Positions 1-33,872 are shown, counted from the first letter of the stretch. The stretch: 35,853 bases of DNA from a virus (IMGVR_UViG_3300010391_000005:1-35853); one strand, 5' to 3'. Program-made: numbers and translations. Notes: generated from the letters alone by a model not told the origin.

Positions 1-252
1 ATCAAATACAATAGGCATCAAAGGATAGCTTTAGTTCCTTACCTGTATTTAATAGGCTATACTGGTCCTTCTAACATTGATAATGCAGATGGTGAAATCG
101 CTGAAGAGGTAGATGAAAATCTTAAAGAAAAGATTTTAAATATGGCTAAAAGATTTATATGGAAAGGCTATTCTGTTGTTGAGTTTGATGATCTATTAAA
201 ACTACCCGAAGATTTCTGGTTCAACAGGAGTGATGATGGCTATCCGCAATAA
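1..252 (+). CDS. C-terminal part of an unknown protein (5' end outside window)
   Basis: Frame 1 is open from the first base to the TAA at 250-252 and gives 83 residues of ordinary-looking protein: an aliphatic/aromatic N-terminal stretch (ALVPYLYLIGY), an acidic helix, then a segment ending in PEDFWFNRSDDGYPQ. I do not recognise the family. Its last 17 bases overlap the start of the portal gene, and the portal ribosome-binding site (AGGAG at 226-230) lies inside it, so the two genes are probably translated from one message. In T4 the gene before gp20 is the tail tube gp19, but this is not gp19, because the tube gene is at 27780. It is most likely a head or DNA-packaging protein by position only. 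Confidence 0.6.
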   Translation: MKYNRHQRIALVPYLYLIGYTGPSNIDNADGEIAEEVDENLKEKILNMAKRFIWKGYSVVEFDDLLKLPEDFWFNRSDDGYPQ

Positions 253-3200
253 AGAGATTGAAAAAAGATCAGAGACAATACAGCAGTATTTCAACAAAAT
301 CAATATCACCAGAATCAGAGATCTCATAACTCCAACAGATAGAAGAGGCGAAGAGTCTACTTTTGCTTTTAGTGCTTATCGAACTTCAGTAGAAAATTTA
401 ACTGTAATAGATCAAAGCAGGTTACAGAGATATAGAGAATATGAGCAAATGTGTTACGTACCGGAATTGAATGGTGGTTTAGAGCTGTATTGTTTCACTG
501 GAGATACTAAAATATATACCCCTACTGGTTTTATAACAGTCAGAGAGCTTGTAGAAAAAAATATAAAAGATTTCTACGTATTCTCATATGATTTTAAAAA
601 ACATAAAGTTGTGTGTGCTAAGGCTAATAATGCCCATAAATCTGGTGAAAGTAAAACTCTCAAAATAACTCTAGATGATGGTTCGTCAATAAGAGTTACA
701 CCACATCACAAGTTCTTGCTCAGAAACGAGAAATGGATAAAGGCTAAAAACCTATCAGTCGGAGACAGCTTGATGCCTCTCTATACAAGAATTAGAGATG
801 AGCGTGTTCAGATAAACAACTTAGCTGGTGATTGGGTTAAAAGATTCAGGATAGTTGGTGAATTAAAATATGGCGATTTACCAAAGGGCCATCAGATCCA
901 CCATGTTGATTTAAATAAATCCAATGATAGTCCAGAAAATTTAACTCTATTAACTACTGAGGAGCATTTAAGTCTCCATCACATCGATGTCCCAAGAGGC
1001 TCTATAGGCGATAAAGACTGGTGGTTAATTGAAGCGAACAGAAAAGCACATTCGGATAGAGTTTCAAAAAGAAATAAATTAATGTGGGCCGAAAAAAGAT
1101 CGGAGCTTATCAATGCTATAAAAACAGGAGTAGCACAGTCAAATTATGATAGGCATTGGACCGATAAAGAGAAATCAGATTTTTCTGAATACATTAAAAA
1201 CAAATATAAATCAGACCCTTATTATAAATTGAAAGTATCTAATCTCGGCTCAAAGAATGGAAGATTTGTAAAGAGCGTCTCATATTCTGACTTATTCGAG
1301 ATCGCAAAGACATCAGACAATAGTATAGATTTCCATAAAAATTGCAACAATTTATTGAATGTGTCTTATAGAGTAACAGATAGATTGCTTAAACCAATGA
1401 GATTAACTCCATTGAAGCTAATTAATTTAGCAAAAAACCATAAAGTAGTAAGTATCGAAATATCAGAAGAAGTAGAAGAAGTATTTGACATAACAGTACC
1501 GAGCTATAACAATTTCGCGACTGATTCTATTTTTATACACAACTCAGACGACGCTTCACTATATAATGAGAAAGATGAAGTTGTAGAAATAGATTCAGAC
1601 AATCAAGAGATAAGTGATACATTAGATGATCTATGGTTTAAATCACTAGACATGAATTCCGTCTTATGGCACATTGTTTATAATACTTGTAAATATGGTG
1701 ATGCTTTCTATGAAATAATACCCGATAGTTATAGTAATCCTAAGAAAATCAAGCACATAAGATTTGTGCCACCACAATTTGTAGTCAGAAGAGAGAAAGA
1801 TGCTAACTTGCTAGAATTTGTGGTCAGAATCACTCCCGACTCTAGGACGCCAACATCCGCTACTTATTACAGTTCAGCTGAAGCTTCAGAATTTGTATTA
1901 AAGCCGTGGCAAATGGTTCATTTTAAATTAGACGATAAAGAATTTGACCCTTATGGCAAATCAGTTCTAGAACCCGGAAGATTAGCTTTCAAACAAATGA
2001 AATTGATTGAAGATGCTATGATGATTTACAGGATGTCTAGGGCTCCAGAGAGAAGAGTCTTTGGTATTCCCGTAGGGAATTTACCATATAGAGAAGCTAT
2101 GAAGAGAGTTGAAGATATCAAAACTAGATATCGCAAGACTCCATGGATTGATCCTACTAGTGGTGAAATAAACTATAATGCTAATCCTTTGTGTTTAGCT
2201 CTAGATACAAAAATTGATTTACTAGATGGAAGATCTGAATCGTTATCTACTTTAATAGAGGAATTCAAATCTGGTAAAGAAAATTGGGTTTACTCTGTTG
2301 ATACTTCTAGAAATAACAAAATAGTACCTGGTAAAATTGAATGGGCTGGCATCACAAGAAAGAACGCAGAACTCGTAGAAGTTTTTATAGATAATGGAAA
2401 ATCTATTAAGTGCACTCCAGACCATAAATTTATGCTTAGAGATGGCAGCTATAAAGAGGCAAGGGATTTAGTAGCCGGTGAGAGCCTGATGCCTAAGTAT
2501 ACTAAAACATCTAAGAAAGGATACGAAAAAATATTCGACCCAAATACTAGAAAATATATACCAACCTACATGATGGTGGTTAGAGAGACTCAATCAAGTC
2601 TCTGGAATAAGAAGTATTCTAAAAAACATATCCATCATTACGATTTAAGAAAGATCAACAATTCACCAAGCAATTTGAAAATATTAGAATCAGTTGAACA
2701 TTTAAGGTTACATGCTATACACAACAAAGAAAACTGGCAAAATAATGAATATAGAGCAAAACAGATTACTTCTAGAATAAAAGCTTGGGTTAACGCATCG
2801 AATGAGCGAAGACAACTACAATCAGAAATTATGATTGAGTACAATAAAAGTGATGCTCATAAGAGAAGTACAATAGCTAGAAACAATAAATTCTGGGCTG
2901 ATGTAGAAAACAGAAAAAGAACTTCTTCTAAAATGCGAAAACCAAAATCTACAACAGAAAAGATGCATATCAAATTTGATGATAAGTTCTGGGGCTTTGT
3001 TGATACGGCTATAAAAACTTATAACATGCAGAACGAAGTAGTTGAAGCTTTAAACTCTAATGATGAATTCTTAAATCATTTCGTTTCTATAACGCCACGA
3101 AGCAACAAACAAATACATAGACATTTATTAACAAAAGCTTATAGAAGTAAGGGATTTGATACTTTCAAAGAGTATTCTTCTTTTGTAAAAAATGGCGAGA

Positions 3201-4312
3201 ACCATAAAGTTGTATCAGTTGAGTATTTAGATTATAAAGAAGACACCGGTTGTATAACAGTAACTGAGTGGCACAACTTTATGACAAATGGAACAACAGT
3301 GAAAAATTCCATAAATGATGATTTTTTCTTACCTCGTCGTCCCGATGGTTCTGGTATCACAATTGATTATTTGCCCGGTGGTCAGCAATTAGGGGAAATA
3401 GACGACGTAAGATATTTTAAAGAGAAAATACTTAGGACAATGAGAATTCCTATGGCTTATCTAACTGGAGAACTAACAGGAGATGTCGCTAGAACTTCTC
3501 TATCAGCTATGGACGTTAGATTTGCTAAAGCAATCGAGAGAATACAAAAACAGGTCATAAAAGGTTTAGAGAAATTAGCTATTATAGAATTAGCTTTTAA
3601 ACGATTCACAATCCAAGATATGCATGAATTCAGAATAAAGCTAACTCCTCCCTCTAAGATTTATGAAATCCAAGAACTTGAAACACTAACGGCTAAATTC
3701 AATACAATTCAAACTGCTCTTCAAATGGCTGATGATCAAGGTAAGCTTTATCTCCCAAGAGAGTGGTTGTACAAAAATATTAGCAAATTCACTGAGCAAG
3801 AAATTTCTAATATTAAACTTATGCAACAAAGAGAGGCTGCCGAGAAAGCGGAACCAGGCGCAGCAGGAGCTGGTGCTGAAGCAGGTGGAGGATTGACTAT
3901 GGGCGGAGCTCCAGGTGGCGGAGTACCCGGCGGAGGATTAGAAGCTGGCGCAGCTGGACCTGAAGCAGGTATTGAAGCTGGCGGAGCGGTGGCAGCAGGA
4001 CCTGAAGCTGGGGGAGCACCAGAAGAAATTCCAGCCGCTGGTGGCGGAGAAGCTGCTTTGACAGCAGCACAAATATTAAAAGTTGCTGGTCAACAGTTCT
4101 TAGTTGAGAACGAAGATGATCTACGCGAATTAATAAAATTCGTGAAGCAATACAAAGAAAACGAAAAGATAACTAAAGATAAATCTGAACAGAAGCCCGA
4201 GAGAAAAATGTACGAAAATAACTTCGAAAATCTTTTCTTACACGGAGAACTCAAAGGGCTAATTAGAAGACGAAATAACAATAATCAGAAAAAGGAAATG
4301 CTCAAAGACTAG
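236..4312 (+). CDS. 20: Portal vertex protein (gp20-like) precursor with two contiguous inteins
   Basis: This is the dodecameric head-tail connector through which DNA enters and leaves the capsid. The extein pieces carry gp20 hallmarks: REYEQM near the N-terminus, the SRAPERRVF...VGNLP block (about 2036-2085), PTSGEINYN before the second intein, and FFLPRRPDGSG...LPGGQQLGEIDDVRYFKEK after it. Two in-frame inteins (491-1543 and 2192-3307) interrupt it. Removing both leaves about 635 residues, against about 524 for T4 gp20, the excess being a Gly/Ala/Pro-rich tail (3840-4075) and a Lys/Glu-rich C-terminus. The ATG at 236 is preferred because AGGAG at 226-230 is well spaced from it; GTG 230 and ATG 233 are alternatives. 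Function of the portal requires both splicing events. The identification is secure; the exact start is less so. Confidence 0.93.
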   Translation: MAIRNKEIEKRSETIQQYFNKINITRIRDLITPTDRRGEESTFAFSAYRTSVENLTVIDQSRLQRYREYEQMCYVPELNGGLELYCFTGDTKIYTPTGFITVRELVEKNIKDFYVFSYDFKKHKVVCAKANNAHKSGESKTLKITLDDGSSIRVTPHHKFLLRNEKWIKAKNLSVGDSLMPLYTRIRDERVQINNLAGDWVKRFRIVGELKYGDLPKGHQIHHVDLNKSNDSPENLTLLTTEEHLSLHHIDVPRGSIGDKDWWLIEANRKAHSDRVSKRNKLMWAEKRSELINAIKTGVAQSNYDRHWTDKEKSDFSEYIKNKYKSDPYYKLKVSNLGSKNGRFVKSVSYSDLFEIAKTSDNSIDFHKNCNNLLNVSYRVTDRLLKPMRLTPLKLINLAKNHKVVSIEISEEVEEVFDITVPSYNNFATDSIFIHNSDDASLYNEKDEVVEIDSDNQEISDTLDDLWFKSLDMNSVLWHIVYNTCKYGDAFYEIIPDSYSNPKKIKHIRFVPPQFVVRREKDANLLEFVVRITPDSRTPTSATYYSSAEASEFVLKPWQMVHFKLDDKEFDPYGKSVLEPGRLAFKQMKLIEDAMMIYRMSRAPERRVFGIPVGNLPYREAMKRVEDIKTRYRKTPWIDPTSGEINYNANPLCLALDTKIDLLDGRSESLSTLIEEFKSGKENWVYSVDTSRNNKIVPGKIEWAGITRKNAELVEVFIDNGKSIKCTPDHKFMLRDGSYKEARDLVAGESLMPKYTKTSKKGYEKIFDPNTRKYIPTYMMVVRETQSSLWNKKYSKKHIHHYDLRKINNSPSNLKILESVEHLRLHAIHNKENWQNNEYRAKQITSRIKAWVNASNERRQLQSEIMIEYNKSDAHKRSTIARNNKFWADVENRKRTSSKMRKPKSTTEKMHIKFDDKFWGFVDTAIKTYNMQNEVVEALNSNDEFLNHFVSITPRSNKQIHRHLLTKAYRSKGFDTFKEYSSFVKNGENHKVVSVEYLDYKEDTGCITVTEWHNFMTNGTTVKNSINDDFFLPRRPDGSGITIDYLPGGQQLGEIDDVRYFKEKILRTMRIPMAYLTGELTGDVARTSLSAMDVRFAKAIERIQKQVIKGLEKLAIIELAFKRFTIQDMHEFRIKLTPPSKIYEIQELETLTAKFNTIQTALQMADDQGKLYLPREWLYKNISKFTEQEISNIKLMQQREAAEKAEPGAAGAGAEAGGGLTMGGAPGGGVPGGGLEAGAAGPEAGIEAGGAVAAGPEAGGAPEEIPAAGGGEAALTAAQILKVAGQQFLVENEDDLRELIKFVKQYKENEKITKDKSEQKPERKMYENNFENLFLHGELKGLIRRRNNNNQKKEMLKD
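491..1543 (+). other. Intein 1 in the portal gene, with HNH-type homing endonuclease region
   Basis: A 351-codon in-frame insertion. It begins with Cys (CFTGDTKIYTPTG, block A), has a block B motif TPHHKFLLR, and ends with VFDITVPSYNNF...FIHN followed by Ser as the +1 extein residue, so all splicing residues (Cys1, the B-block His, penultimate His, terminal Asn, Ser+1) are present. The middle holds an HNH-like region around 885-990 (HQIHHVDLNK, then NDSPENLTLL and EEHLSLHH), followed by a basic helical segment that probably binds DNA. It sits between extein residues LELY and SDDAS in a conserved part of the portal. It should be splicing competent, and the nuclease could make it mobile. Confidence 0.93.
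2192..3307 (+). other. Intein 2 in the portal gene, HNH-type, with Lys instead of the penultimate His
   Basis: A 372-codon in-frame insertion starting with Cys (CLALDTKIDLLDG) and having block B (CTPDHKFMLRDG), block F (CITVTEWHNFMTNG) and the end TTVKN followed by Ser+1. The penultimate residue is Lys where most inteins have His. A central HNH-like region (HIHHYDLRKINNSPSNL, then EHLRLH, about 2627-2715) parallels that of intein 1. The two inteins share layout and several short motifs, such as ESLMPKYT versus DSLMPLYT and GENHKVVSVE versus KNHKVVSIE, so they are probably related copies. The insertion point lies just before the strongly conserved FFLPRR motif of gp20. Confidence 0.92.
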
Positions 4313-9486: not shown

Positions 9487-11289
9487 ATGGAATATAATAT
9501 AGACAAAATCAACTATGAAGTTAAACAAATTACATTTAGAAAAGATTTCCCCGATAGTTCCTTTATATTTATCAAAAAGAAAAGACTTACTAGAGATGAT
9601 AATGTAATTTTTAATTGTGTTAAATGCGGCAAAAGAGTTGAGATAAACGCCGAAAGATTTGTTAGAAATAAAAAAGAAAATAAATTATGTTGGAATTGTA
9701 ATCTTACTGCGTCGAGGTTAAACAATCCAAATTGCAAAAGGTCAGAAGAAACAAAAGAAAAACTTAGAAAACGCGTAAGAGAAGATGGTAGATATATTGA
9801 TGAATTCGTTGAATTAGTTTGTAAAACTTGTGGTAAGACTTTTAAACATAGACTAGCTCATTCATACACAACATCAGCAAGAAAAACAACTAAGAACAAA
9901 AATAAGAAAAATAGAGAAAGAAAATTTTGCTCAGAAGATTGCAGAAGAAAAGCTTTTGCTATAGTCGGTTCTCATCAGGGTCATCACGGTTGCGAAGGAA
10001 TGGCTAATCTTGATAAAACTAAGCAAACTAAACCAGAAGAATTGTTTGAGAACAAGTTAAAAGACGTTAAACATACCTATCAAAAAAAGATTAATAAGTT
10101 TATGTTTGATTTTTATTTAGAAGACAAAACATTGATAGAAGTCGATGGAGATTATTGGCACTATAATCCCGAAAAACAAAAGAAAATAATAAAACTTATT
10201 CAGTTTGAGAAAATAATCAAAGACGCTAAGAAAACTAATTATTGTATCAAGAACAACAGAAAATTAATAAGAGTTTGGGAAAGCGAAATACTCGATAACA
10301 TTACTCTTGATGAAATACTAAAAAAACCTATAAACCAAAAAAGAGAATTTAGCTTTGATCAAATAATATTAAAGAAAGAGTTTTTACTGAAGTTAAACAA
10401 ATCTCAATTAGAGCAATCTGTTGATTTAATTCTTCAATGGATTCGTCTTTTTTATCCTAATTTTTACATTAACTATAATGAAGAATCATTAGATTTAATA
10501 GTTAATAAAATATCTAAAGACAGGCTAGATTTCTGGGACAACCCTAACACAAGTCTAAGCGAAGGTAATCTGTTTCTTAAAAACCGTTTTATGAGTTTCT
10601 GGAAGGGGATTAAAAGTAAAGACATTTCTTTATTTGATGCTTTTTATAGCGACAAAGTCTTAGAAAAAATAATTCGTTATAGAGTTGGCCTAAACAATAA
10701 AAGAGAAACTTTCGATATTTCGATGAAAAATATTATACGAGGTTTTATTTCTGGTGGTTATTCAATTTCTTGGTTTTCGCCTTCATTGGCTTATGAGATC
10801 TATAAAAGATTTGCAGGTAATGCTAAAAGAATATACGATCCTTGTTCGGGCTTTGGAGCTCGAGCTTTAGGGTGGAAAGCTTTTGGTGGATCTTATTATT
10901 TTGGAGTAGATGTCAATCCAGAAACTGTAGATGAAAATAAAAAACTACTTAAAGAGATAGGGTTAAATGGGGACGTAATTTGTGGTCTATCAGAGAAAGT
11001 AATTCTAAACGAAAAATTTGATTTTGCTTTAACTTGCCCACCTTATTTTAATAACGAAGATTATTCTAAGAAGATGATTAAATATGAAGACATAGAAAAG
11101 GAATTCTTAGTTCCTATGATTAAGAACACTCTACAAGTCTCGCCGAAATTTTCTCTCGTGGTAGATAAGAATTTAAAAGAAATGATTGAGAGAAACTTCA
11201 CAGTGTCTGAAATAATCACACTTGCTAATTCTAAACATCACTTTCGAACTAAGAAAGTTGATGAATATATCGTAGTTCTTACTGCATAA
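9487..11289 (+). CDS. Zinc-finger / Vsr-like endonuclease fused to a DNA methyltransferase
   Basis: 600 residues with a composite layout. Residues about 43-75 hold CVKC and CWNC, and 110-153 hold CKTC and CSEDC: two probable zinc-binding knuckles as seen in homing nucleases. Residues 178-270 resemble the Vsr-like (EDxHD) nuclease fold, with PEELFENKL, MFDFYLEDK, IEVDGDYWHYNPEKQ (E218, D220, D222, H225) and RKLIRVWESEI. After a helical linker, residues about 445-600 form a Rossmann methyltransferase: DPCSGFGARALG (SAM motif I, from 451), FGVDVNPETV (motif II) and FDFALTCPPYFNN (motif IV, CPPY at 517). The likely roles are DNA cleavage and base methylation in one chain. It follows a 225-base AT-rich gap after the capsid terminator. 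The target and the methylated base cannot be told from sequence. Confidence 0.82.
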   Translation: MEYNIDKINYEVKQITFRKDFPDSSFIFIKKKRLTRDDNVIFNCVKCGKRVEINAERFVRNKKENKLCWNCNLTASRLNNPNCKRSEETKEKLRKRVREDGRYIDEFVELVCKTCGKTFKHRLAHSYTTSARKTTKNKNKKNRERKFCSEDCRRKAFAIVGSHQGHHGCEGMANLDKTKQTKPEELFENKLKDVKHTYQKKINKFMFDFYLEDKTLIEVDGDYWHYNPEKQKKIIKLIQFEKIIKDAKKTNYCIKNNRKLIRVWESEILDNITLDEILKKPINQKREFSFDQIILKKEFLLKLNKSQLEQSVDLILQWIRLFYPNFYINYNEESLDLIVNKISKDRLDFWDNPNTSLSEGNLFLKNRFMSFWKGIKSKDISLFDAFYSDKVLEKIIRYRVGLNNKRETFDISMKNIIRGFISGGYSISWFSPSLAYEIYKRFAGNAKRIYDPCSGFGARALGWKAFGGSYYFGVDVNPETVDENKKLLKEIGLNGDVICGLSEKVILNEKFDFALTCPPYFNNEDYSKKMIKYEDIEKEFLVPMIKNTLQVSPKFSLVVDKNLKEMIERNFTVSEIITLANSKHHFRTKKVDEYIVVLTA

Positions 11290-12139: not shown

Positions 12140-12895
12140 ATGTTCAACATATTTGGCGATTGTTTTGAAGAAATTAAAAATATTGAAACAAATTCTATAG
12201 ATTTAATACTTACAGATCCTCCTTATGAAATAGATATGAAAGATGGACATGCTAAAAATCCTTTAAAAAGGATCACAAACGATACTGCAGGAAGTATTGA
12301 TTGGGACACCTTCTTTAAAGAAACATATAGAGTACTAAAACCAAACAAAATGATGTTCATTTGTTGCAGAACGGATATGATTATTCGTATTTCAGCTTTT
12401 TTACAAAACAGCGAATTTATTTATGCTCATGATTTAGTTTGGCTCAAGGGCGATATGGGATATGGTAACTTAAACATCATGGGCACTACTCATGAATTAT
12501 TATTAGCTATAAGCAAAGGTAAACCAGAAAAATCAAGAGTAATTATAGTCGATGATGAAGAGAAAAAAAGAACTCCGGCTATTTTTTATGGTAAAATAAC
12601 TAAAAAAGAATATTACAAACATCCGACACAAAAACCAGTTGGTCTACTGGCCTATATAATAATGAACAGAACGGATGAGGGAGATGTCGTTTTAGATCCG
12701 TTTGCAGGAGTAGGTTCTACTTTAGTTGCGGCTAAAATATTAAATCGCAATTATATTGGAATAGAAATAGATAAAGAGTTTTTCGACTTATCAGAAGAAA
12801 GGCTCCATAATAAAAATCACTTAAAACAATATATAGAAATGTTGGAGTTTGGACTAATAAGATTTAATGGGGCTATAAAATTCAGAAAAGACTAA
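12140..12895 (+). CDS. DNA methyltransferase, beta class (N6-adenine or N4-cytosine)
   Basis: 251 residues, a normal length for a solitary phage methylase. The catalytic motif IV, LILTDPPYE (D26-PPY), comes first, and the SAM-binding motifs come last: HPTQKP, then VVLDPFAGVGST (D186 to about T194) and NYIGIEID. This order (IV before I) defines the beta group of amino-methyltransferases. GGAG about 8 bases upstream supports the ATG. A terminator lies just before it, so it is probably transcribed from its own promoter with the GIY-YIG gene. Such enzymes protect phage DNA from host restriction or alter gene expression; no matching restriction gene is adjacent apart from the nearby nucleases. Confidence 0.93.
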   Translation: MFNIFGDCFEEIKNIETNSIDLILTDPPYEIDMKDGHAKNPLKRITNDTAGSIDWDTFFKETYRVLKPNKMMFICCRTDMIIRISAFLQNSEFIYAHDLVWLKGDMGYGNLNIMGTTHELLLAISKGKPEKSRVIIVDDEEKKRTPAIFYGKITKKEYYKHPTQKPVGLLAYIIMNRTDEGDVVLDPFAGVGSTLVAAKILNRNYIGIEIDKEFFDLSEERLHNKNHLKQYIEMLEFGLIRFNGAIKFRKD

Positions 12896-12923
12896 AGCTT
12901 CGATTTATATTTAAGATATAGTT

Positions 12924-13586
12924 ATGAATAAATGGGAAGAACAAGATGCGCTTATTAGAGAACAAACTAAAGCTTGGATAGTGTCAGACGACAACCTCAA
13001 TAATGTTGATTTCGTTGAAATAAAAAATAAAAATGATTTTGAGAGAATACCCAACAAAGGTGGAGTTTATTGGATATCAACTAATGAACCTATTGTCCAC
13101 TCTTTACACAAAAGAAAAACTCCACAAAAAAATAATGATTTCGAAATAATTTATAATGGGCTCGCAAAAGATAATGTACGTTCACGAATCAAAAAACACT
13201 TATTTAGAGAAGAGAGTGCAGGTTGGTCAGCTATAAGCGTCGATATTTTACTTGAAGGTAATGACCCTAAATCTCACACAAAAATTGCAATGGCCCCAGG
13301 TAGGGTAAAAGTTCCTTATATAAATAACGCGCCTGTTAGAAATTTAAGATTACTATCACAATTTAATCTCTCTGAAGAGGAAAGAAATTTTATTCAAAAG
13401 AACTCGAACAAAGGACACTTTTATTTTAGTAACGGTATAGACTGTCTGTCTGCCAAACATAATAATTTTATCTATAGAGTTTATTTTATAACTGAGCTTT
13501 CCGAAGTATATTCATCTTTTATTGAAAAAGCCTGGAGAAAGAAATGCGGATATCCACGACTCTGCTCATACAAATCAGGGAGATGA
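12924..13586 (+). CDS. GIY-YIG-type nuclease
   Basis: 220 residues. The core motifs are GGVYWI (G47-V48-Y49, the GIY element), IIYNGLAKDNVRSRIKKHL (Y77-N78-G79, the YIG element, with the conserved Arg in the following helix), and near the C-terminus a Glu in SSFIEKAW followed by GYPRLCSYKSGR. These fit a single-domain GIY-YIG endonuclease. No NUMOD or zinc DNA-binding module is visible, so it may be a repair or restriction-type enzyme rather than a classical homing enzyme. No good Shine-Dalgarno precedes the ATG. Its 3' end overlaps the next ORF by 43 bases in another frame. Confidence 0.72.
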   Translation: MNKWEEQDALIREQTKAWIVSDDNLNNVDFVEIKNKNDFERIPNKGGVYWISTNEPIVHSLHKRKTPQKNNDFEIIYNGLAKDNVRSRIKKHLFREESAGWSAISVDILLEGNDPKSHTKIAMAPGRVKVPYINNAPVRNLRLLSQFNLSEEERNFIQKNSNKGHFYFSNGIDCLSAKHNNFIYRVYFITELSEVYSSFIEKAWRKKCGYPRLCSYKSGR

Positions 13587-18313: not shown

Positions 18314-18447
18314 TCTGTTTTCTCCTTAGCTCCTCGAGTTCTCTTCTCCTCTCTTTGAAGACTTCTTCTACTCTTGTCCAGTGACAACTTTCTATCACTA
18401 GATTGTAAAAAATATTTTATCTGTTTTTCTTCATCACCTAAAATCAT
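18310..18447 (-). CDS. 45-aa highly charged protein, coupled on both sides
   Basis: A short minus-strand ORF whose ATG overlaps the TGA of the nuclease gene (ATGA, 18444-18447) and whose TGA overlaps the ATG of the next gene (ATGA, 18310-18313). It exactly fills the gap between the two larger genes. The sequence begins MILGDEEKQIKYFLQSSDRK and is very rich in Arg, Lys and Glu toward the C-terminus, so it may be a long charged helix. Its double four-base overlap is the main evidence for translation. Function is unknown. Confidence 0.6.
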   Translation of the reverse strand: MILGDEEKQIKYFLQSSDRKLSLDKSRRSLQREEKRTRGAKEKTE

Positions 18448-19205
18448 TCTATTTTTATATCCTTTACTGTACTATTATAAACTTGCATAGTATTGCCTAT
18501 GTCTGAAGTTACACTTGATCCACTTGATATAGTGTTAGCGTATGTAACATTATTGACTTGAAGATGTCCACTATTTACTTGAGCATTCCATTGATTCAGA
18601 TTGAAATCGAAGCTTCTTACGTCGTTAGCCAAATAGACTATAGGAAAATTTGCTCCTGGATGATCTAAATCCCACCTCATCAGCTCTTCTAGTTCTTGAG
18701 AAGCATCGATACCCTTTTTAGCACAAAAAGATTTAAACTCTAGCCAAACATCTTTATCAATAGTAACTCCAGCTTGAATTTTCTTTTTAGAAATTAGTAA
18801 AGGCTCGTATTCTTTCATAAAATTTTCGACCATTCGTGAAGATTCCCCCTTCGATTTTCCTTTAAAAATTGACCATACCTCTTTATCAACAGAAATTCCC
18901 GGTTTTATTTTTGTAACCATCTCAAATGCCTCCGACTCTCTTATTCTAATAAACTCAAAATCAGGAAATTTTTCTTGTATTATTTTTTGTCTTTTTAAGT
19001 CTTTTTTAATTTGATCTTTAGAACGAAAGTGACGTTCTTCATCCCACTCAATAATTAGTTTAAAATCAAAATTTATATAATCTACTCTATAAAGAGTACC
19101 AGTTATTTTAAACTCATTACCGTCTAATGCATGAACACCTTTAGTGTTATATTTTTGATCAAACATACAAAAAAATCTGCAAGCTTTTTTATTATAAATA
19201 CTCAT
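18444..19205 (-). CDS. Nuclease-like protein with two ribbon-helix-helix-like segments
   Basis: 253 residues from ATG 19205; upstream in-frame ATGs at 19232 and 19223 are alternatives. Residues about 30-95 look like a PD-(D/E)XK/Vsr-type nuclease: GTLYRVDYINFDFKLIIEWD with D42, E53 and D55, then ERHF (H59), and FPDFEFIRIRESEAF as the last strand and helix. Two related segments follow, ISVDKEVWSIFKGKSKGESS (about 104-123) and VTIDKDVWLEFKSFCAKKG (about 147-165), each a beta strand plus two helices like an RHH DNA-binding unit. The C-terminal 70 residues are Asn/Ser/Thr-rich and unrecognised. It is the first gene of a coupled three-gene operon. It may be a homing nuclease or a defence nuclease; the catalytic assignment is tentative. 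Confidence 0.6.
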   Translation of the reverse strand: MSIYNKKACRFFCMFDQKYNTKGVHALDGNEFKITGTLYRVDYINFDFKLIIEWDEERHFRSKDQIKKDLKRQKIIQEKFPDFEFIRIRESEAFEMVTKIKPGISVDKEVWSIFKGKSKGESSRMVENFMKEYEPLLISKKKIQAGVTIDKDVWLEFKSFCAKKGIDASQELEELMRWDLDHPGANFPIVYLANDVRSFDFNLNQWNAQVNSGHLQVNNVTYANTISSGSSVTSDIGNTMQVYNSTVKDIKIE

Positions 19206-19215
19206 ATAAACTCTT

Positions 19216-19232
19216 ATGGCCATAATGGCCAT
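19216..19232. promoter_or_regulatory. Symmetric element of two ATGGCCAT palindromes
   Basis: The 17 bases read ATGGCCATAATGGCCAT: two copies of the 8-base palindrome ATGGCCAT separated by one base. It lies at the start of the minus-strand operon, close to where a repressor such as the operon's own RHH-like protein could bind. The same bases can encode the N-terminal MAIMAI if the far ATG is used, so it may be coding. No sharper evidence is available. Confidence 0.25.
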
Positions 19233-29713: not shown

Positions 29714-30751
29714 ATGAAAAAAGTTGCTATATATTCTGATCTCCACCTTTATAATCATCATAAACTTTTAGTCAATTCCGAGACGGCTCTTAATTTTCTG
29801 ACTCACCTTAAAGATTATTGTCTATCTAACAACATCGATACAATAGTAAATGCGGGAGACTTCTTTCACACTAAGGCAAGGGCATATGCTCCTCACGTAA
29901 TACAAGCGTGGTTGAGAATAAAAGACATATACAAAAATAAGATCAAACAATACAGTCTTATCGGCAACCACGATATGGCTAACCCGAATAATACGATGAA
30001 TTCAATCATGTTCACTTTCAGTGATTATTCTAAAATAATACCTGATTATTATTTTATCGATTTTGAAAAAACGAGAATCCATTTTTTGAGTTATACTAAA
30101 AACATGTTTGAAAATTTCATTTTAGCTGAAGAGAAGAAAAATGTTCTCATAGCTCATGTTGACATAATCGGATTCATCATGCCTAACGGCTTTAGATCAA
30201 CTACTGGTTTTAATCTCGAAGACTTCAAAGATTTCGATTTAGTAATCTCTGGCCATTACCATAAACATCAACTCAAAGACAATGTTGTATATGTGGGAAG
30301 TCCATATCAAACTAGCTTTGCTGAAAGAAATCAAGAGCATGGTTTTGTTTTGTTAGACGTAGATGATATAACATGGGAATTTGTAGAATATAAAGATTCT
30401 CCACAGTATAAAATAGTCACAATTAAAAAACTAGCAGATATAGCAACTTTTGATTCTCAGGGTAATTTCATAAAAGTCAAATTGATAAATGATAAAATCA
30501 ATAAAAACAAATTAAGAGATTTACTTTTTGAGTCTGGTGCTATCAGCGTAGATATAATTCCCCCTGAAGATGTTAAAGAAATAGAGAAATATTACGACAA
30601 AGATTTAGGAAGCAATCCCATAGATGTTGCTATAGCCTATCTAAATAATTTCTCTAGTTTACCTTTTGAAAAAGAATATCTTCTAAAATACTTCGACAAA
30701 ATAGAAGAATTCGCTAATAAGATGACGGAGTTCGAGCTGAATGAAATTTAA
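29714..30751 (+). CDS. 47: Recombination endonuclease subunit gp47 (SbcD/Mre11 family)
   Basis: 345 residues, close to T4 gp47 (339). All metallophosphoesterase motifs are visible: SDLHL (D9, H11), NAGDFFH (G48, D49), IGNHD (N85, H86), a lone catalytic His in LIAHVD (H148), and SGHYHKH (H181, H183). gp47 with gp46 resects double-strand ends to load UvsX, feeding T4-type recombination-dependent replication. The gp46 gene starts 11 bases before this gene's end, as in T4 where the two are adjacent. There is no strong Shine-Dalgarno before the ATG. Confidence 0.95.
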   Translation: MKKVAIYSDLHLYNHHKLLVNSETALNFLTHLKDYCLSNNIDTIVNAGDFFHTKARAYAPHVIQAWLRIKDIYKNKIKQYSLIGNHDMANPNNTMNSIMFTFSDYSKIIPDYYFIDFEKTRIHFLSYTKNMFENFILAEEKKNVLIAHVDIIGFIMPNGFRSTTGFNLEDFKDFDLVISGHYHKHQLKDNVVYVGSPYQTSFAERNQEHGFVLLDVDDITWEFVEYKDSPQYKIVTIKKLADIATFDSQGNFIKVKLINDKINKNKLRDLLFESGAISVDIIPPEDVKEIEKYYDKDLGSNPIDVAIAYLNNFSSLPFEKEYLLKYFDKIEEFANKMTEFELNEI

Positions 30752-31181
30752 CTACGTGAAATTTAAAAACTTCATGAGCTACGGAGATGAAGTTTATACT
30801 ATTTCTCTTTCTGAGCCTGGCATCACTCTAATAACTGGTAACAATAGAAGAGATGGTGGGAGTAATGGTAGCGGGAAATGCGTTTATCGCGGGACTAAAG
30901 TCATCACTAAAGAACTTGGTGAAATTGAAATACAAGAATTAGTTCCCGACACTAAACCGGGATATTTATACTATCCGGATAGCGACTTACACGTTTTATC
31001 CGTCGACGATACTTGGCAAGAAGTTAAATTCTTTTGGGTAACTGACCAAGAAGAACTATATGAATTAGAAACTTTAGATGGACATAAAATTGTTGCATCT
31101 GGAGACCATAGAGTTTTTACTAGAAGAGGGTGGGTAAAGATAAAAGAACTCGAAGAAACTGATGAGGTTCTAACAAGATAA
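30741..31181 (+). CDS. 46: gp46 N-terminal half fused to split-intein N-fragment
   Basis: 146 residues. The first 46 are the start of gp46/SbcC/Rad50 (FKNFMSYGDEVYTISL, then SNGSGK, the Walker A glycines and lysine). From Cys47 the sequence is an intein N-fragment of 100 residues: CVYRGTKVITKELGEIEIQE (block A), then ELYELETLDGHKIVASGDHR with FTRRGWVKIKELEETD (block B), ending at a stop. The missing Ser/Thr of the Walker motif lies at the start of the C-terminal half at 32184. The gene is therefore useless alone and must be rejoined by trans-splicing. Its start overlaps gp47 by 11 bases. Confidence 0.93.
   Translation: MKFNYVKFKNFMSYGDEVYTISLSEPGITLITGNNRRDGGSNGSGKCVYRGTKVITKELGEIEIQELVPDTKPGYLYYPDSDLHVLSVDDTWQEVKFFWVTDQEELYELETLDGHKIVASGDHRVFTRRGWVKIKELEETDEVLTR
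30879..31181 (+). other. Split intein, N-terminal fragment (gp46)
   Basis: 100 residues from Cys1 to the stop. Block A, B and the Thr/His-type B motif (SGDHRVF) are present. It pairs with the 37-residue fragment at 32073-32183. Confidence 0.92.
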
Positions 31182-31215
31182 CTACACTAATGGAGTATCA
31201 TAGTAGGAGTCATCT

Positions 31216-32088
31216 ATGAAAGAGAACAACTTAGATGAATGTTATAAAAATCCCGGCGTCTTGAATAAAATATTGAGACGTTGGAGTATAAATAAAAGTG
31301 ACATCGTTTTTAGAGATGATGAATATATCGGATGGTGGGATACAAAAAATGAAAGATTGATAAGTCCAAGAAGATCTAAAGTGAGAGTAATTTGTAGCTT
31401 GTGTGGGCGAGCGAATATAATTCCGTATCGTGTCTGGAAATTAAAAAAAGAACAGAATAAAAATATATGTTCAAATTGTTCGAGATCGTCTACACTTAGC
31501 AATTTAAATAAAACAGTTATAAAAGAAAAAAATTTAAACTTCTGGTCTTCAGAGGAAGGCAAAAGTTTAAGAGAAAAATTTCGGGAAGCTAGAATTCTAT
31601 ATAACAAAAATGAATTGAAAAATATAAATCTTAAAAAGAGTTACAAAGAAAAAGAAATTATCTGTAATAAGAAGCGTATTACGTGGTTTTCTAGGCCAAT
31701 AGAGGATAGAAATAAAATAACCGAGAAGAGATTGAATGGGTCATTTAAAGGTATAGAAGAAAAATCTGGACTAAGATATGATAGTTCTTATGAAAAATTT
31801 TTTATAGAAAGGTGCATTGAGGCAGGACTAAATATTTCTAGAGGTCCTAAAATACTATATTATGATTCTGAGGAGAAAGTCTTACGCACTTATTTTTGTG
31901 ATTTTATAGTTGCTAATTATTTAATAGAAATAAAATCTAGATGGACTATTAAAACTTTGGCCCAAGCAAAAATAGATGCTGCAAAATCCTATGCTAAAGA
32001 ATTTGGCCATAAAGGTTTTATGGTAGTGATTATAAGAAAGCAAATGCTCCAAGAGGGGTTATTGGATTTAAAATGTTTTCAAAAATAA
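31216..32088 (+). CDS. Homing-type endonuclease inserted between the halves of gp46
   Basis: 290 residues with its own AGGAG. CSLC (60-63) and CSNC (85-88) form a zinc knuckle after a basic N-terminus. The C-terminal nuclease includes LRYDSSYEKFFIERCIEAG (E193), YFCDFIVANYLIEIKSRW (D229, E238, K240) and GFMVVIIRKQ, a PD-(D/E)XK/Vsr-type fold. It lies precisely between the split-intein fragments, the arrangement described for fractured genes by Dassa and colleagues (2009), where a Vsr-like (EDxHD) nuclease separates the intein halves. Its 3' end overlaps the C-fragment gene by 16 bases. It probably cuts intein-less gp46 alleles at the P-loop. Confidence 0.85.
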   Translation: MKENNLDECYKNPGVLNKILRRWSINKSDIVFRDDEYIGWWDTKNERLISPRRSKVRVICSLCGRANIIPYRVWKLKKEQNKNICSNCSRSSTLSNLNKTVIKEKNLNFWSSEEGKSLREKFREARILYNKNELKNINLKKSYKEKEIICNKKRITWFSRPIEDRNKITEKRLNGSFKGIEEKSGLRYDSSYEKFFIERCIEAGLNISRGPKILYYDSEEKVLRTYFCDFIVANYLIEIKSRWTIKTLAQAKIDAAKSYAKEFGHKGFMVVIIRKQMLQEGLLDLKCFQK

Positions 32089-32183
32089 AAAAAATAACTA
32101 AACTTTATAAAAAAGACTTTTGTTATGACATACAAATTGAAGATACTAGTAGTTACTTTAGTAACGGTATTCTGAGCCACAAC
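32073..32183 (+). other. Split intein, C-terminal fragment (gp46)
   Basis: 37 residues containing blocks F and G, ending S-H-N with Ser+1. It is of normal length for a C-intein of a naturally split intein. Confidence 0.92.
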
Positions 32184-33872
32184 TCTACAGCAATTGTAGA
32201 GTCTGTAGTTTATAGCCTCTTTGGTCAAACTACTAAAAAAGCTAAAGCTGAGCAAGTTGTTAATAATCGAAAGAAAAAGAATTGTTTTGTAGAAATTTCT
32301 TTTGACATTAACCGAGACAACTACGTAGTGAAAAGATATCGATTACACGATGAATTTGGCAATAAGATATTTTTACTTAAAAATAACGTAGATATATCTT
32401 CTGAAAAAATGAAAGACACTCAGTCTCTCATTGAGTCTATTATCAAAATTAGTTTTAAATCTTTTATTCTATCTATTGTTCTATCACAAGAGAAGATGGT
32501 TGGCTTTGCAGAAAATGATCCGATTGAGAGAAGAAAAATAATCGAAAGTCTTCTCATGTATGAATTTATTTCTAAGTATAGTAAAGTTGTCAGAGAAACG
32601 CTTCGAATAATAAATCCAGAAATAGAAAATCAACAAAATAGTTATAGAGACAAAAAAGACACTACCACAACTCTAACTAGTAATCTATTGAAGTACGTAG
32701 AAAAGTGGGAAACCGAAGAAGCAAATAAGAAAAATCGTATAGAGTCTTTGAAGAGAGAATTAGAAGAACGGAAGAAGATCAACCCTAATGAAGAACTATC
32801 AAAACGCGAAGAGTTAAGAAAAAAACTTAAAGAAAAAGAAACTCTAGTAAAAATCAAAGAACAATACGAAAGTAGCTTCTTTGATTCTTCTAGTGATATA
32901 CAAAAATTGAAAAGAAAAGTTGCAGAAAAAGAAAAAGAAATAGAAGAAATCAACAAGAAGCCCAAGAATTGCCCTGTTTGTGATAACCCTAAAATAAAAG
33001 AAGAAGTCTTTCAAGATTATCTCCAAAAGAAGATAACTGAAAGAGATGAAGCTAAAAATAGCTTAGTGACTCAAGAAGAAAACTCGAAAAATTTGAAACT
33101 AAAAATTGACCAACATAGAGAGGAGATAAATTCTAAGACTAATGAAATAGTCGCTCTCAAAGAATCAATTCTTTCGAAATTCAGCGATGAAGAGATTCAA
33201 CATTTAAGAGAAAAAATAACTAGCATAGAATCTGAAATCAATGTTTTATCTTCGCAAATCGTACAACAAATTGAAGAAGACGAGTATATCAAAAATACTC
33301 AAGTTAAGATTGCAGAAATAGAAGAACAGGCTAGAAACTTAAAGAAGAAAATAAAAAAACTCGAAGGAGAAAGAGGTGGTTTTGATTGGTGGAGAGAAGC
33401 TTTAGGAAATTCACCCAGCTCTATGAAGTCTTTTTGTGTAAATCATATATTGCCGTCACTAGACAAATATATAAATTATTATCTGAGCTTTTTCGGTTAT
33501 GATGACATTAACTATAATTTAGATAACGAGCTAGAAGAAACAATAATTAAAGATGGAGAGGAGATAACTTTTGGTCTCTTAAGCGGAGGAGAAAAAAGGT
33601 CAGTTGAAATAAGTTTAGTTTTCGCTCTCTATGAAATAGTTAGGTTAAAAATGCCCGATAATATAAATATTATTGTCTTAGATGAAATATTGTCAAACTA
33701 TTTAGACGAAGTTAGGACAGCAGGAACTTTAGATCTATTGAGTGAACTTGAAAATAGAGGATTAAGTATTTTTGTGATTGACCATAGAAATCTCATCAAA
33801 GAAAATTTAGATTGCAAAGTTATTAATGTGGTAAAAGAGAAAGACGCTACTTCTAGCTTAGAATTAAGCTGA
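32073..33872 (+). CDS. 46: Split-intein C-fragment fused to gp46 C-terminal part
   Basis: 599 residues. The first 37 are an intein C-fragment (KKDFCYDIQIEDTSSYFSNG, ending ILSHN with penultimate His and Asn), followed by Ser+1 and STAIVESVVYSLFGQT, the rest of the Walker A strand-helix. The remainder is gp46/SbcC: long coiled coils, the Rad50-type zinc hook NCPVCDNP (about 32968), the ABC signature LLSGGEKRS (about 33575) and Walker B IIVLDEILSN (about 33670) with a D-loop and IDHRN. The spliced product is 46 plus 562, about 608 residues (T4 gp46 is 560). ATP hydrolysis drives the gp46/47 resection complex. The ATG overlaps the endonuclease stop. Confidence 0.94.
   Translation: MFSKIKKITKLYKKDFCYDIQIEDTSSYFSNGILSHNSTAIVESVVYSLFGQTTKKAKAEQVVNNRKKKNCFVEISFDINRDNYVVKRYRLHDEFGNKIFLLKNNVDISSEKMKDTQSLIESIIKISFKSFILSIVLSQEKMVGFAENDPIERRKIIESLLMYEFISKYSKVVRETLRIINPEIENQQNSYRDKKDTTTTLTSNLLKYVEKWETEEANKKNRIESLKRELEERKKINPNEELSKREELRKKLKEKETLVKIKEQYESSFFDSSSDIQKLKRKVAEKEKEIEEINKKPKNCPVCDNPKIKEEVFQDYLQKKITERDEAKNSLVTQEENSKNLKLKIDQHREEINSKTNEIVALKESILSKFSDEEIQHLREKITSIESEINVLSSQIVQQIEEDEYIKNTQVKIAEIEEQARNLKKKIKKLEGERGGFDWWREALGNSPSSMKSFCVNHILPSLDKYINYYLSFFGYDDINYNLDNELEETIIKDGEEITFGLLSGGEKRSVEISLVFALYEIVRLKMPDNINIIVLDEILSNYLDEVRTAGTLDLLSELENRGLSIFVIDHRNLIKENLDCKVINVVKEKDATSSLELS

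What the first reader, a model, noticed from the sequence alone, without database searches (positions are those of the whole stretch)
30741..33872. gp46 recombination gene fractured by a split intein with a homing nuclease between the halves, cut exactly inside the P-loop
gp46 is encoded as two genes: extein residues 1-46 plus a 100-aa N-intein, and a 37-aa C-intein plus 562 extein residues. A 290-aa zinc/PD-(D/E)XK nuclease gene sits between them. The junction falls between Lys and Ser of Walker A, so unspliced protein cannot bind ATP and recombination depends on trans-splicing. The arrangement matches the fractured genes with Vsr-like nucleases described by Dassa and colleagues (2009), but I do not recall gp46 as a described host. 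A natural split intein with a short C-fragment is also of biochemical value.
Basis: partly seen in the sequence, partly recalled or inferred. Interest (0 to 1): 0.92.

Follow-up and report, generated by a model that had tools for sequence, protein, structure and literature searches.

The report
Split intein breaks phage gene 46
In this uncultured T4-like virus of bacteria, the gene for the DNA-repair protein gp46 is cut in two at its ATP-binding loop by a self-joining protein insert with a DNA-cutting enzyme gene lodged between the halves; this is a known kind of selfish element, in a host gene where I found no earlier report of it.

Summary
Confirmed. The window encodes gp46 (Rad50/SbcC-like ATPase) as two genes, with a third between them. 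gp46-N (30741-31181) is 46 extein residues plus a 100-aa intein N-half. gp46-C (32073-33872) is a 37-aa intein C-half plus 562 extein residues. Both halves pass NCBI's curated intein cut-offs at the predicted junctions. Relatives carry one uninterrupted gene reading ...GGSNGSGK|STAIVES..., so the insertion point between Walker-A Lys and Ser is certain. The arrangement is a 'fractured gene': a canonically split intein with a free-standing nuclease between the halves.

One correction: the nuclease is not Vsr-like. It has an E...D...ExK active site and belongs to a large family of phage PD-(D/E)XK nucleases related to T7 endonuclease I. The closest sister phage has an empty gp46 but a fractured gp41 helicase with a similar nuclease inside.

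Other T4-like contigs carry inteins at the same gp46 site, mostly split near the N-terminus and without a nuclease, so gp46 is a recurrent intein site. I found no published gp46 split intein in the open-access papers searched. Splicing and homing are inferred, not shown.

The parts
29714..30751 (+). gp47 (SbcD-like metallophosphoesterase), partner subunit of gp46; its end overlaps the gp46 start by 11 nt
   Evidence: phrog_100 E 3.9e-45; Metallophos E 3.3e-12
30741..30878 (+). gp46 N-extein, residues 1-46, ending in the first part of Walker A (GSNGSGK)
   Evidence: phrog_77 E 3.8e-7 over residues 1-46; 74-79% identical to intact relatives
30879..31181 (+). Intein N-half, 100 aa (Cys1, block-B SGDH), followed by a TAA stop
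   Evidence: intein_Nterm E 3.8e-11; Intein_splicing E 2.9e-7
31216..32088 (+). Free-standing nuclease, 290 aa, probable homing endonuclease; preceded by AGGAG ribosome-binding-like sequence
   Evidence: ORF; family of phage PD-(D/E)XK nucleases
31384..31488 (+). CxxC...CxxC zinc-ribbon-like region of the nuclease (residues 57-91)
   Evidence: sequence; ZZ zinc finger E 0.016, below cut-off
31780..31980 (+). PD-(D/E)XK catalytic core of the nuclease (residues 189-255; E193, D229, E238, K240)
   Evidence: invariant in 41 family members; profile match to T7 endonuclease I E 2.7e-4; AlphaFold2 domain model pLDDT 78
32073..32183 (+). Intein C-half, 37 aa, ending in His-Asn; its start overlaps the nuclease gene by 16 nt
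   Evidence: intein_Cterm E 1.7e-5; Intein_splicing E 1.2e-4
32184..33872 (+). gp46 C-extein, 562 aa, starting with Ser+1 of Walker A; zinc hook CPVC, signature LSGGEKR, Walker B IIVLDE
   Evidence: phrog_77 E 7.7e-74; Rad50 NF002244 E 4.9e-20

Best explanation
The gp46 recombination gene is a fractured gene. A canonically split class-1 intein (Cys1, terminal His-Asn, Ser+1) interrupts it between Lys and Ser of Walker A, and a free-standing PD-(D/E)XK homing endonuclease gene lies between the halves. The two precursors are made separately, Int-N and Int-C associate, and trans-splicing restores an intact P-loop and full-length gp46 (608 aa). The nuclease most likely cuts intein-less gp46 alleles in co-infected cells, so that double-strand-break repair copies the Int-N/nuclease/Int-C block into them. 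Shown here by sequence: anatomy, junctions, empty alleles in relatives, nuclease superfamily. Inferred: splicing, cleavage specificity, mobility, loss of ATPase before splicing.
For: Curated intein models hit both halves at the exact junctions. Spliced sequence equals intact relatives across the junction. Closest solved inteins by sequence include the natural split inteins NrdJ-1 and gp41-1. The nuclease has an invariant E-D-ExK site and a PD-(D/E)XK fold. The sister phage has the same arrangement, with a similar nuclease, in gp41 instead of gp46. Published fractured genes carry GIY-YIG (PMC7891396) or HNH (PMC6892783) nucleases in this place. Inteins occur at the same gp46 bond in five other phage lineages.
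Against: No splicing or cleavage was tested. The nuclease family is mostly free-standing: none of 72 relatives' flanks showed an intein C-half with a home-made profile. DNA at the insertion site is not more conserved than the rest of the gene 5' part, so a broadly conserved homing site is not evident. The window is a metagenomic fragment.
Confidence: 0.85

Rival explanations
1. The split intein is real, but the nuclease is a free-standing phage nuclease that settled in a ready-made gap. It does not home to gp46, and the intein is now inherited vertically.
For: The nuclease family is large and free-standing. Several gp46 inteins at the same site lack a nuclease. No close relative of this nuclease was found by single-sequence search.
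Against: It sits exactly between the halves and overlaps the gp46-C start. The sister phage has a similar nuclease between the halves of a fractured gp41, which two unrelated settlings would not predict.
Confidence: 0.25
2. The halves and the nuclease are parts of a group I or II intron, or an assembly chimera, rather than a split intein.
For: Nucleases inside genes are also typical of introns; the window is a metagenomic record.
Against: No intron family matches. Both halves have complete intein motifs with their own starts and stops. Inteins at the same bond occur in unrelated contigs. Flanking gene order agrees with the sister contig.
Confidence: 0.02
3. A decayed element: the halves no longer splice and the phage lives without gp46 or with another copy.
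For: No expression data; one relative (L052) has its intein parted by a single in-frame stop codon, so decay or recent splitting does occur in this site's inteins.
Against: All splice-site residues are present, both extein parts keep high identity and all ATPase motifs, and no second gp46 is in the 35.8-kb record.
Confidence: 0.06

Closest known systems
Fractured genes with split inteins, e.g. gp41-1, gp41-8, NrdA-2, NrdJ-1, IMPDH-1 (Dassa et al. 2009, doi 10.1093/nar/gkp095; paper not held, known from memory and from citing papers)
   Same: Host gene in two ORFs, canonically split intein (about 100 + 37 aa), nuclease ORF between the halves; T4-like phage context.
   Different: Host is gp46; nuclease has ExK rather than the EDxHD motif.
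AceL NrdHF split intein (PMC7891396)
   Same: Phage-like contig, fractured gene, 98 + 48 aa split, free-standing homing nuclease between.
   Different: Class 3 intein, nrdHF host, GIY-YIG nuclease.
MIJ3 PolB split intein (PMC6892783)
   Same: Phage gene in two ORFs with a nuclease ORF between.
   Different: PolB host, HNH nuclease, Ser1.
Atypically split inteins (PolB16 OarG, PMC10189870; AceL-TerL, from memory)
   Same: The gp46 inteins of L010, L014, L038 and L052 resemble them: short Int-N, long Int-C.
   Different: The window intein is split at the canonical place.
T7 endonuclease I and phage PD-(D/E)XK nucleases (PHROGs 945, 15427, 15137)
   Same: E-D-ExK site; profile match E 2.7e-4; family members match these PHROGs.
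   Different: Adds an N-terminal zinc-ribbon-like region and sits inside a fractured gene.

Membership tests
Fractured gene with split intein | Host gene in two ORFs at one point, with uninterrupted alleles in relatives | tested here: met
Fractured gene with split intein | Intein N- and C-splicing regions at the junctions, on separate genes | tested here: met
   TIGR01445 and TIGR01443 above curated cut-offs
Fractured gene with split intein | Free-standing nuclease gene between the halves | tested here: met
Fractured gene with split intein | Trans-splicing to the intact host protein | not testable with these tools
   needs co-expression
Fractured gene with split intein | Nuclease cuts the intein-less allele | not testable with these tools
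   needs a cleavage assay
Vsr-like (EDxHD) homing endonucleases | EDxHD active-site motif (motif known from memory) | tested here: not met
   IEIKSRW with invariant E-D-ExK in 41 members; true EDxHD-type proteins of the same group read IEVxGDYWH
Vsr-like (EDxHD) homing endonucleases | Overall fold like Vsr or I-Bth0305I | tested here: inconclusive
   I-Bth0305I Z 7.4 and Vsr Z 6.7, tied with Hjc resolvase Z 8.0
PD-(D/E)XK nucleases related to T7 endonuclease I | E...D...ExK catalytic residues | tested here: met
PD-(D/E)XK nucleases related to T7 endonuclease I | DNA cleavage activity | not testable with these tools
   needs an assay
gp46 / SbcC / Rad50 | Family profile match and genome place next to gp47 | tested here: met
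   phrog_77 E 7.7e-74, gp47 neighbour phrog_100 E 3.9e-45
Atypically split inteins | Short Int-N and long Int-C | tested here: not met
   window intein is 100 + 37 aa; met in L010, L014, L038, L052

The most novel reading that the evidence does not exclude
gp46 is itself part of the end-processing machinery that homing by double-strand-break repair needs, so an intein across its ATP site would make homing and phage recombination wait for splicing: a self-timed element. The recurrent, differently split inteins at this one bond would then be kept partly for such control.
Probability: 0.1. Interest if true: 0.75.

Novelty: new member of a known kind. Interest (0 to 1): 0.5.

Why it matters
It adds a central phage recombination gene to the fractured-gene hosts, with a nuclease of a different branch from the Vsr-like, GIY-YIG and HNH ones reported. 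One bond of gp46 is, in different T4-like phages, empty, filled by a canonically split intein with a nuclease, or filled by inteins split near the N-terminus without a nuclease. That gives a natural series for asking how inteins split and lose their nucleases. The 37-aa Int-C here and the 25-38-aa Int-N fragments of the relatives are candidate protein-ligation tools.

Tried and rejected
Intron reading: no Rfam match in the region or the window. Full-length nuclease model: pLDDT 43, discarded; the catalytic domain with 41 sequences gave pLDDT 78. Foldseek alone gave no PDB match at E <= 0.001, and the second-look alignment could not separate Vsr-like from resolvase-like nucleases, so the catalytic motif and the profile match decided. 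The idea that DNA at the insertion site is unusually conserved was tested and not supported. Single-sequence nuclease searches in IMG/VR and in the sister contigs found nothing; an alignment was needed. A pattern for inteins after a P-loop Lys in one genome for each of 84,980 bacterial and archaeal species gave no gp46 or SbcC intein, only one cut-off SMC candidate. No open-access paper held joins gp46 with split inteins; Dassa et al. 2009 itself is not held. The tree of intein domains is too weak to say whether the window intein shares a recent origin with the other gp46 inteins.

Full report
Observation. gp46-N ends its extein at ...GGSNGSGK and goes on with CVYRGTKV...DEVLTR. gp46-C begins MFSKIKK...YFSNGILSHN and goes on with STAIVES. 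NCBIfam intein_Nterm covers residues 47-127 of gp46-N (E 3.8e-11) and intein_Cterm residues 18-38 of gp46-C (E 1.7e-5), both above the curated cut-off. Pfam Intein_splicing matches the N-half over profile positions 11-93 and the C-half over 120-155; each half alone is below the whole-domain cut-off, as expected of a split domain. The joined 137-aa intein is closest in the PDB to NrdJ-1 (E 1.3e-7), with gp41-1 at 8.7e-4. A split at about 100 + 37 aa is the common one, where a homing endonuclease domain sits in contiguous inteins (PMC12707363).

Empty alleles. Contiguous gp46 genes from IMG/VR contigs (L002, L003, L007 63-70% identical to gp46-C; L004 and L005 about 54%) read GGSNGSGKSTA[IV]V[ED]S across the junction; no residue is missing from or added to the window exteins. 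PHROG 77 runs 296-333 on the N-half and 334-950 on the C-half. In the sister contig of L007 the order gp47, gp46, then small ORFs is the same as in the window. The insertion point is therefore the Walker-A Lys/Ser bond. No Rfam family passes its threshold in the region or window. The nuclease is in another frame than the two gp46 ORFs and overlaps the start of gp46-C by 16 nt; gp46-C has no earlier in-frame ATG, GTG or TTG.

The nuclease. Single-sequence searches recognise little: PDDEXK_3 and ZZ zinc finger below cut-off, and one phage record. From that record (L015) alignments reached a large family of mostly free-standing phage nucleases (72 IMG/VR loci); none of those loci showed an intein C-half in the flanks with a home-made profile that does find the window's own inteins. 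In 41 aligned members E193, D229, E238 and K240 of the window protein are invariant. A profile of this family matches T7 endonuclease I in the PDB at E 2.7e-4, pairing the D and ExK residues, and members match PHROG endonuclease, head-closure and Holliday-junction-resolvase families. An AlphaFold2 model of the catalytic domain (pLDDT 78) aligns best with Hjc resolvase (Z 8.0, 3.1 A over 89 residues), then I-Bth0305I (7.4), VRR_NUC (7.3) and Vsr (6.7); these are near ties and show only the PD-(D/E)XK superfamily. EDxHD-type proteins are present in the same phage group (window 9487-11289; L155 2974-4005) and read IEVxGDYWH where this one reads IEIKSRW. The gp46 nuclease is therefore not filed as Vsr-like.

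Relatives of the arrangement. The sister contig (IMGVR_UViG_3300035701_000054, intact gp46) has its gp41 helicase fractured after the P-loop Lys (PPGIGK|CHTYE), with a nuclease showing weak NUMOD3 and Phage_endo_I signals between the halves and weakly similar to the window nuclease (two-sequence blastp E 0.002). The L004 contig has a T4-type RNA ligase fractured at its KxDG|S motif with an EDxHD-type nuclease between the halves. UvsX is fractured in two further contigs, once with an HNH-like protein between (name by sequence reading). Published fractured genes include AceL NrdHF with GIY-YIG (PMC7891396) and MIJ3 PolB with HNH (PMC6892783).

The same gp46 site elsewhere. A DNA pattern for a P-loop Lys followed by an intein start found gp46 inteins in L010-L013 (one phage, four contigs) and L014. 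A search with their C-halves added L038/L040, L052 and L041. All sit at the same bond. L041 is cut by the contig end and shows a 35-aa, canonical-looking Int-C. The other four lineages are split near the N-terminus (Int-N about 25-38 aa, Int-C about 124-126 aa) with no nuclease between. Of 92 gp46 loci looked at, 9 had an intein, 82 were uninterrupted and 1 gave no hit; several loci come from the same contigs, and the set is not an unbiased sample. The window intein is 21-26% identical to the atypically split ones and 51% identical to L041 over the Int-C only. Whether these are one family or separate arrivals cannot be settled with so short a domain. The nearest relatives of the L014 intein in isolated phages are terminase inteins.

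Mechanism. By established intein chemistry, Cys1, the block-B histidine (SGDH), the terminal His-Asn pair and Ser+1 are those expected of a working class-1 intein. Int-N is acidic (22 acidic, 12 basic) and Int-C slightly basic (6 basic, 4 acidic). Splicing would restore GSNGSGKST, so gp46 ATPase should depend on trans-splicing; that is inference. Homing of the nuclease into intein-less gp46 is inferred from its place and family. A test for unusual conservation of the target DNA was negative: the 24-bp windows at the junction are 67-70% identical among four intact genes against a mean of 66.5%. The rival in which the nuclease merely settled in a ready-made gap stays at about one in four.

Novelty. 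This is a new member of the fractured-gene kind, in a host gene for which I found no published split intein in the open-access papers searched, and with a nuclease family I did not find reported in this place. Much of the split-intein literature is outside the library, so priority is not established.

Noticed in passing
window 230-4312 (+): The portal protein gene (gp20, Portal_T4 E 1.6e-69) is 1360 aa because it holds two full-length inteins, about 491-1543 and 2192-3307, each with an HNH-type endonuclease domain. The sister contig G005 has inteins in a 1290-aa ORF as well.
   Followed up: partly
window 9487-11289 (+): 600-aa protein: zinc ribbons and an EDxHD (DUF559/Vsr-like) nuclease joined to a methyltransferase-like domain (DPCSGFGARALG, TCPPYF); looks like a phage nuclease-methyltransferase fusion.
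   Followed up: partly
window 18444-19232 (-): Minus-strand 262-aa protein with weak MTES_1575/DUF559 (EDxHD-type) signal among plus-strand genes.
   Followed up: no
window 12140-13586 (+): N4/N6 DNA methylase (E 8e-38) next to a GIY-YIG-like nuclease.
   Followed up: no
L153 3025-5762 (sister contig G005:C1:35000-41600): gp41 helicase fractured at its own P-loop (GIGK|C) with a short Int-N and a PD-(D/E)XK-like nuclease gene between the halves.
   Followed up: partly
L155 1971-4855 (G003:C1:95000-101000): T4-type RNA ligase (RNA_lig_T4_1) fractured at the catalytic KxDG|S motif, with a 129-aa ORF and an EDxHD-type nuclease between the halves. I did not check whether this host is published.
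   Followed up: partly
L148 470-2025 and L138 721-2973: UvsX (RecA-like) genes fractured at the same VSGG|C...HN|TG site in two phages; L138 has an HNH-like protein between the halves.
   Followed up: no
L052 3713-5848: gp46 intein parted only by an in-frame TGA followed 9 nt later by ATG, in the same frame: possibly a very recent split.
   Followed up: no
L124 6370-6550 (Omnitrophica contig CAKKQZ010000002.1): SMC-like N-terminus reading GPNGCGK|CIKGTSEVCLSDG then a stop: possible split intein in a bacterial SMC P-loop, cut off by the contig end.
   Followed up: no
L010 2814-5440: Downstream of gp46, an array of small genes made of repeated 'WYLNGxxHREDGPAxxxANG' units.
   Followed up: no
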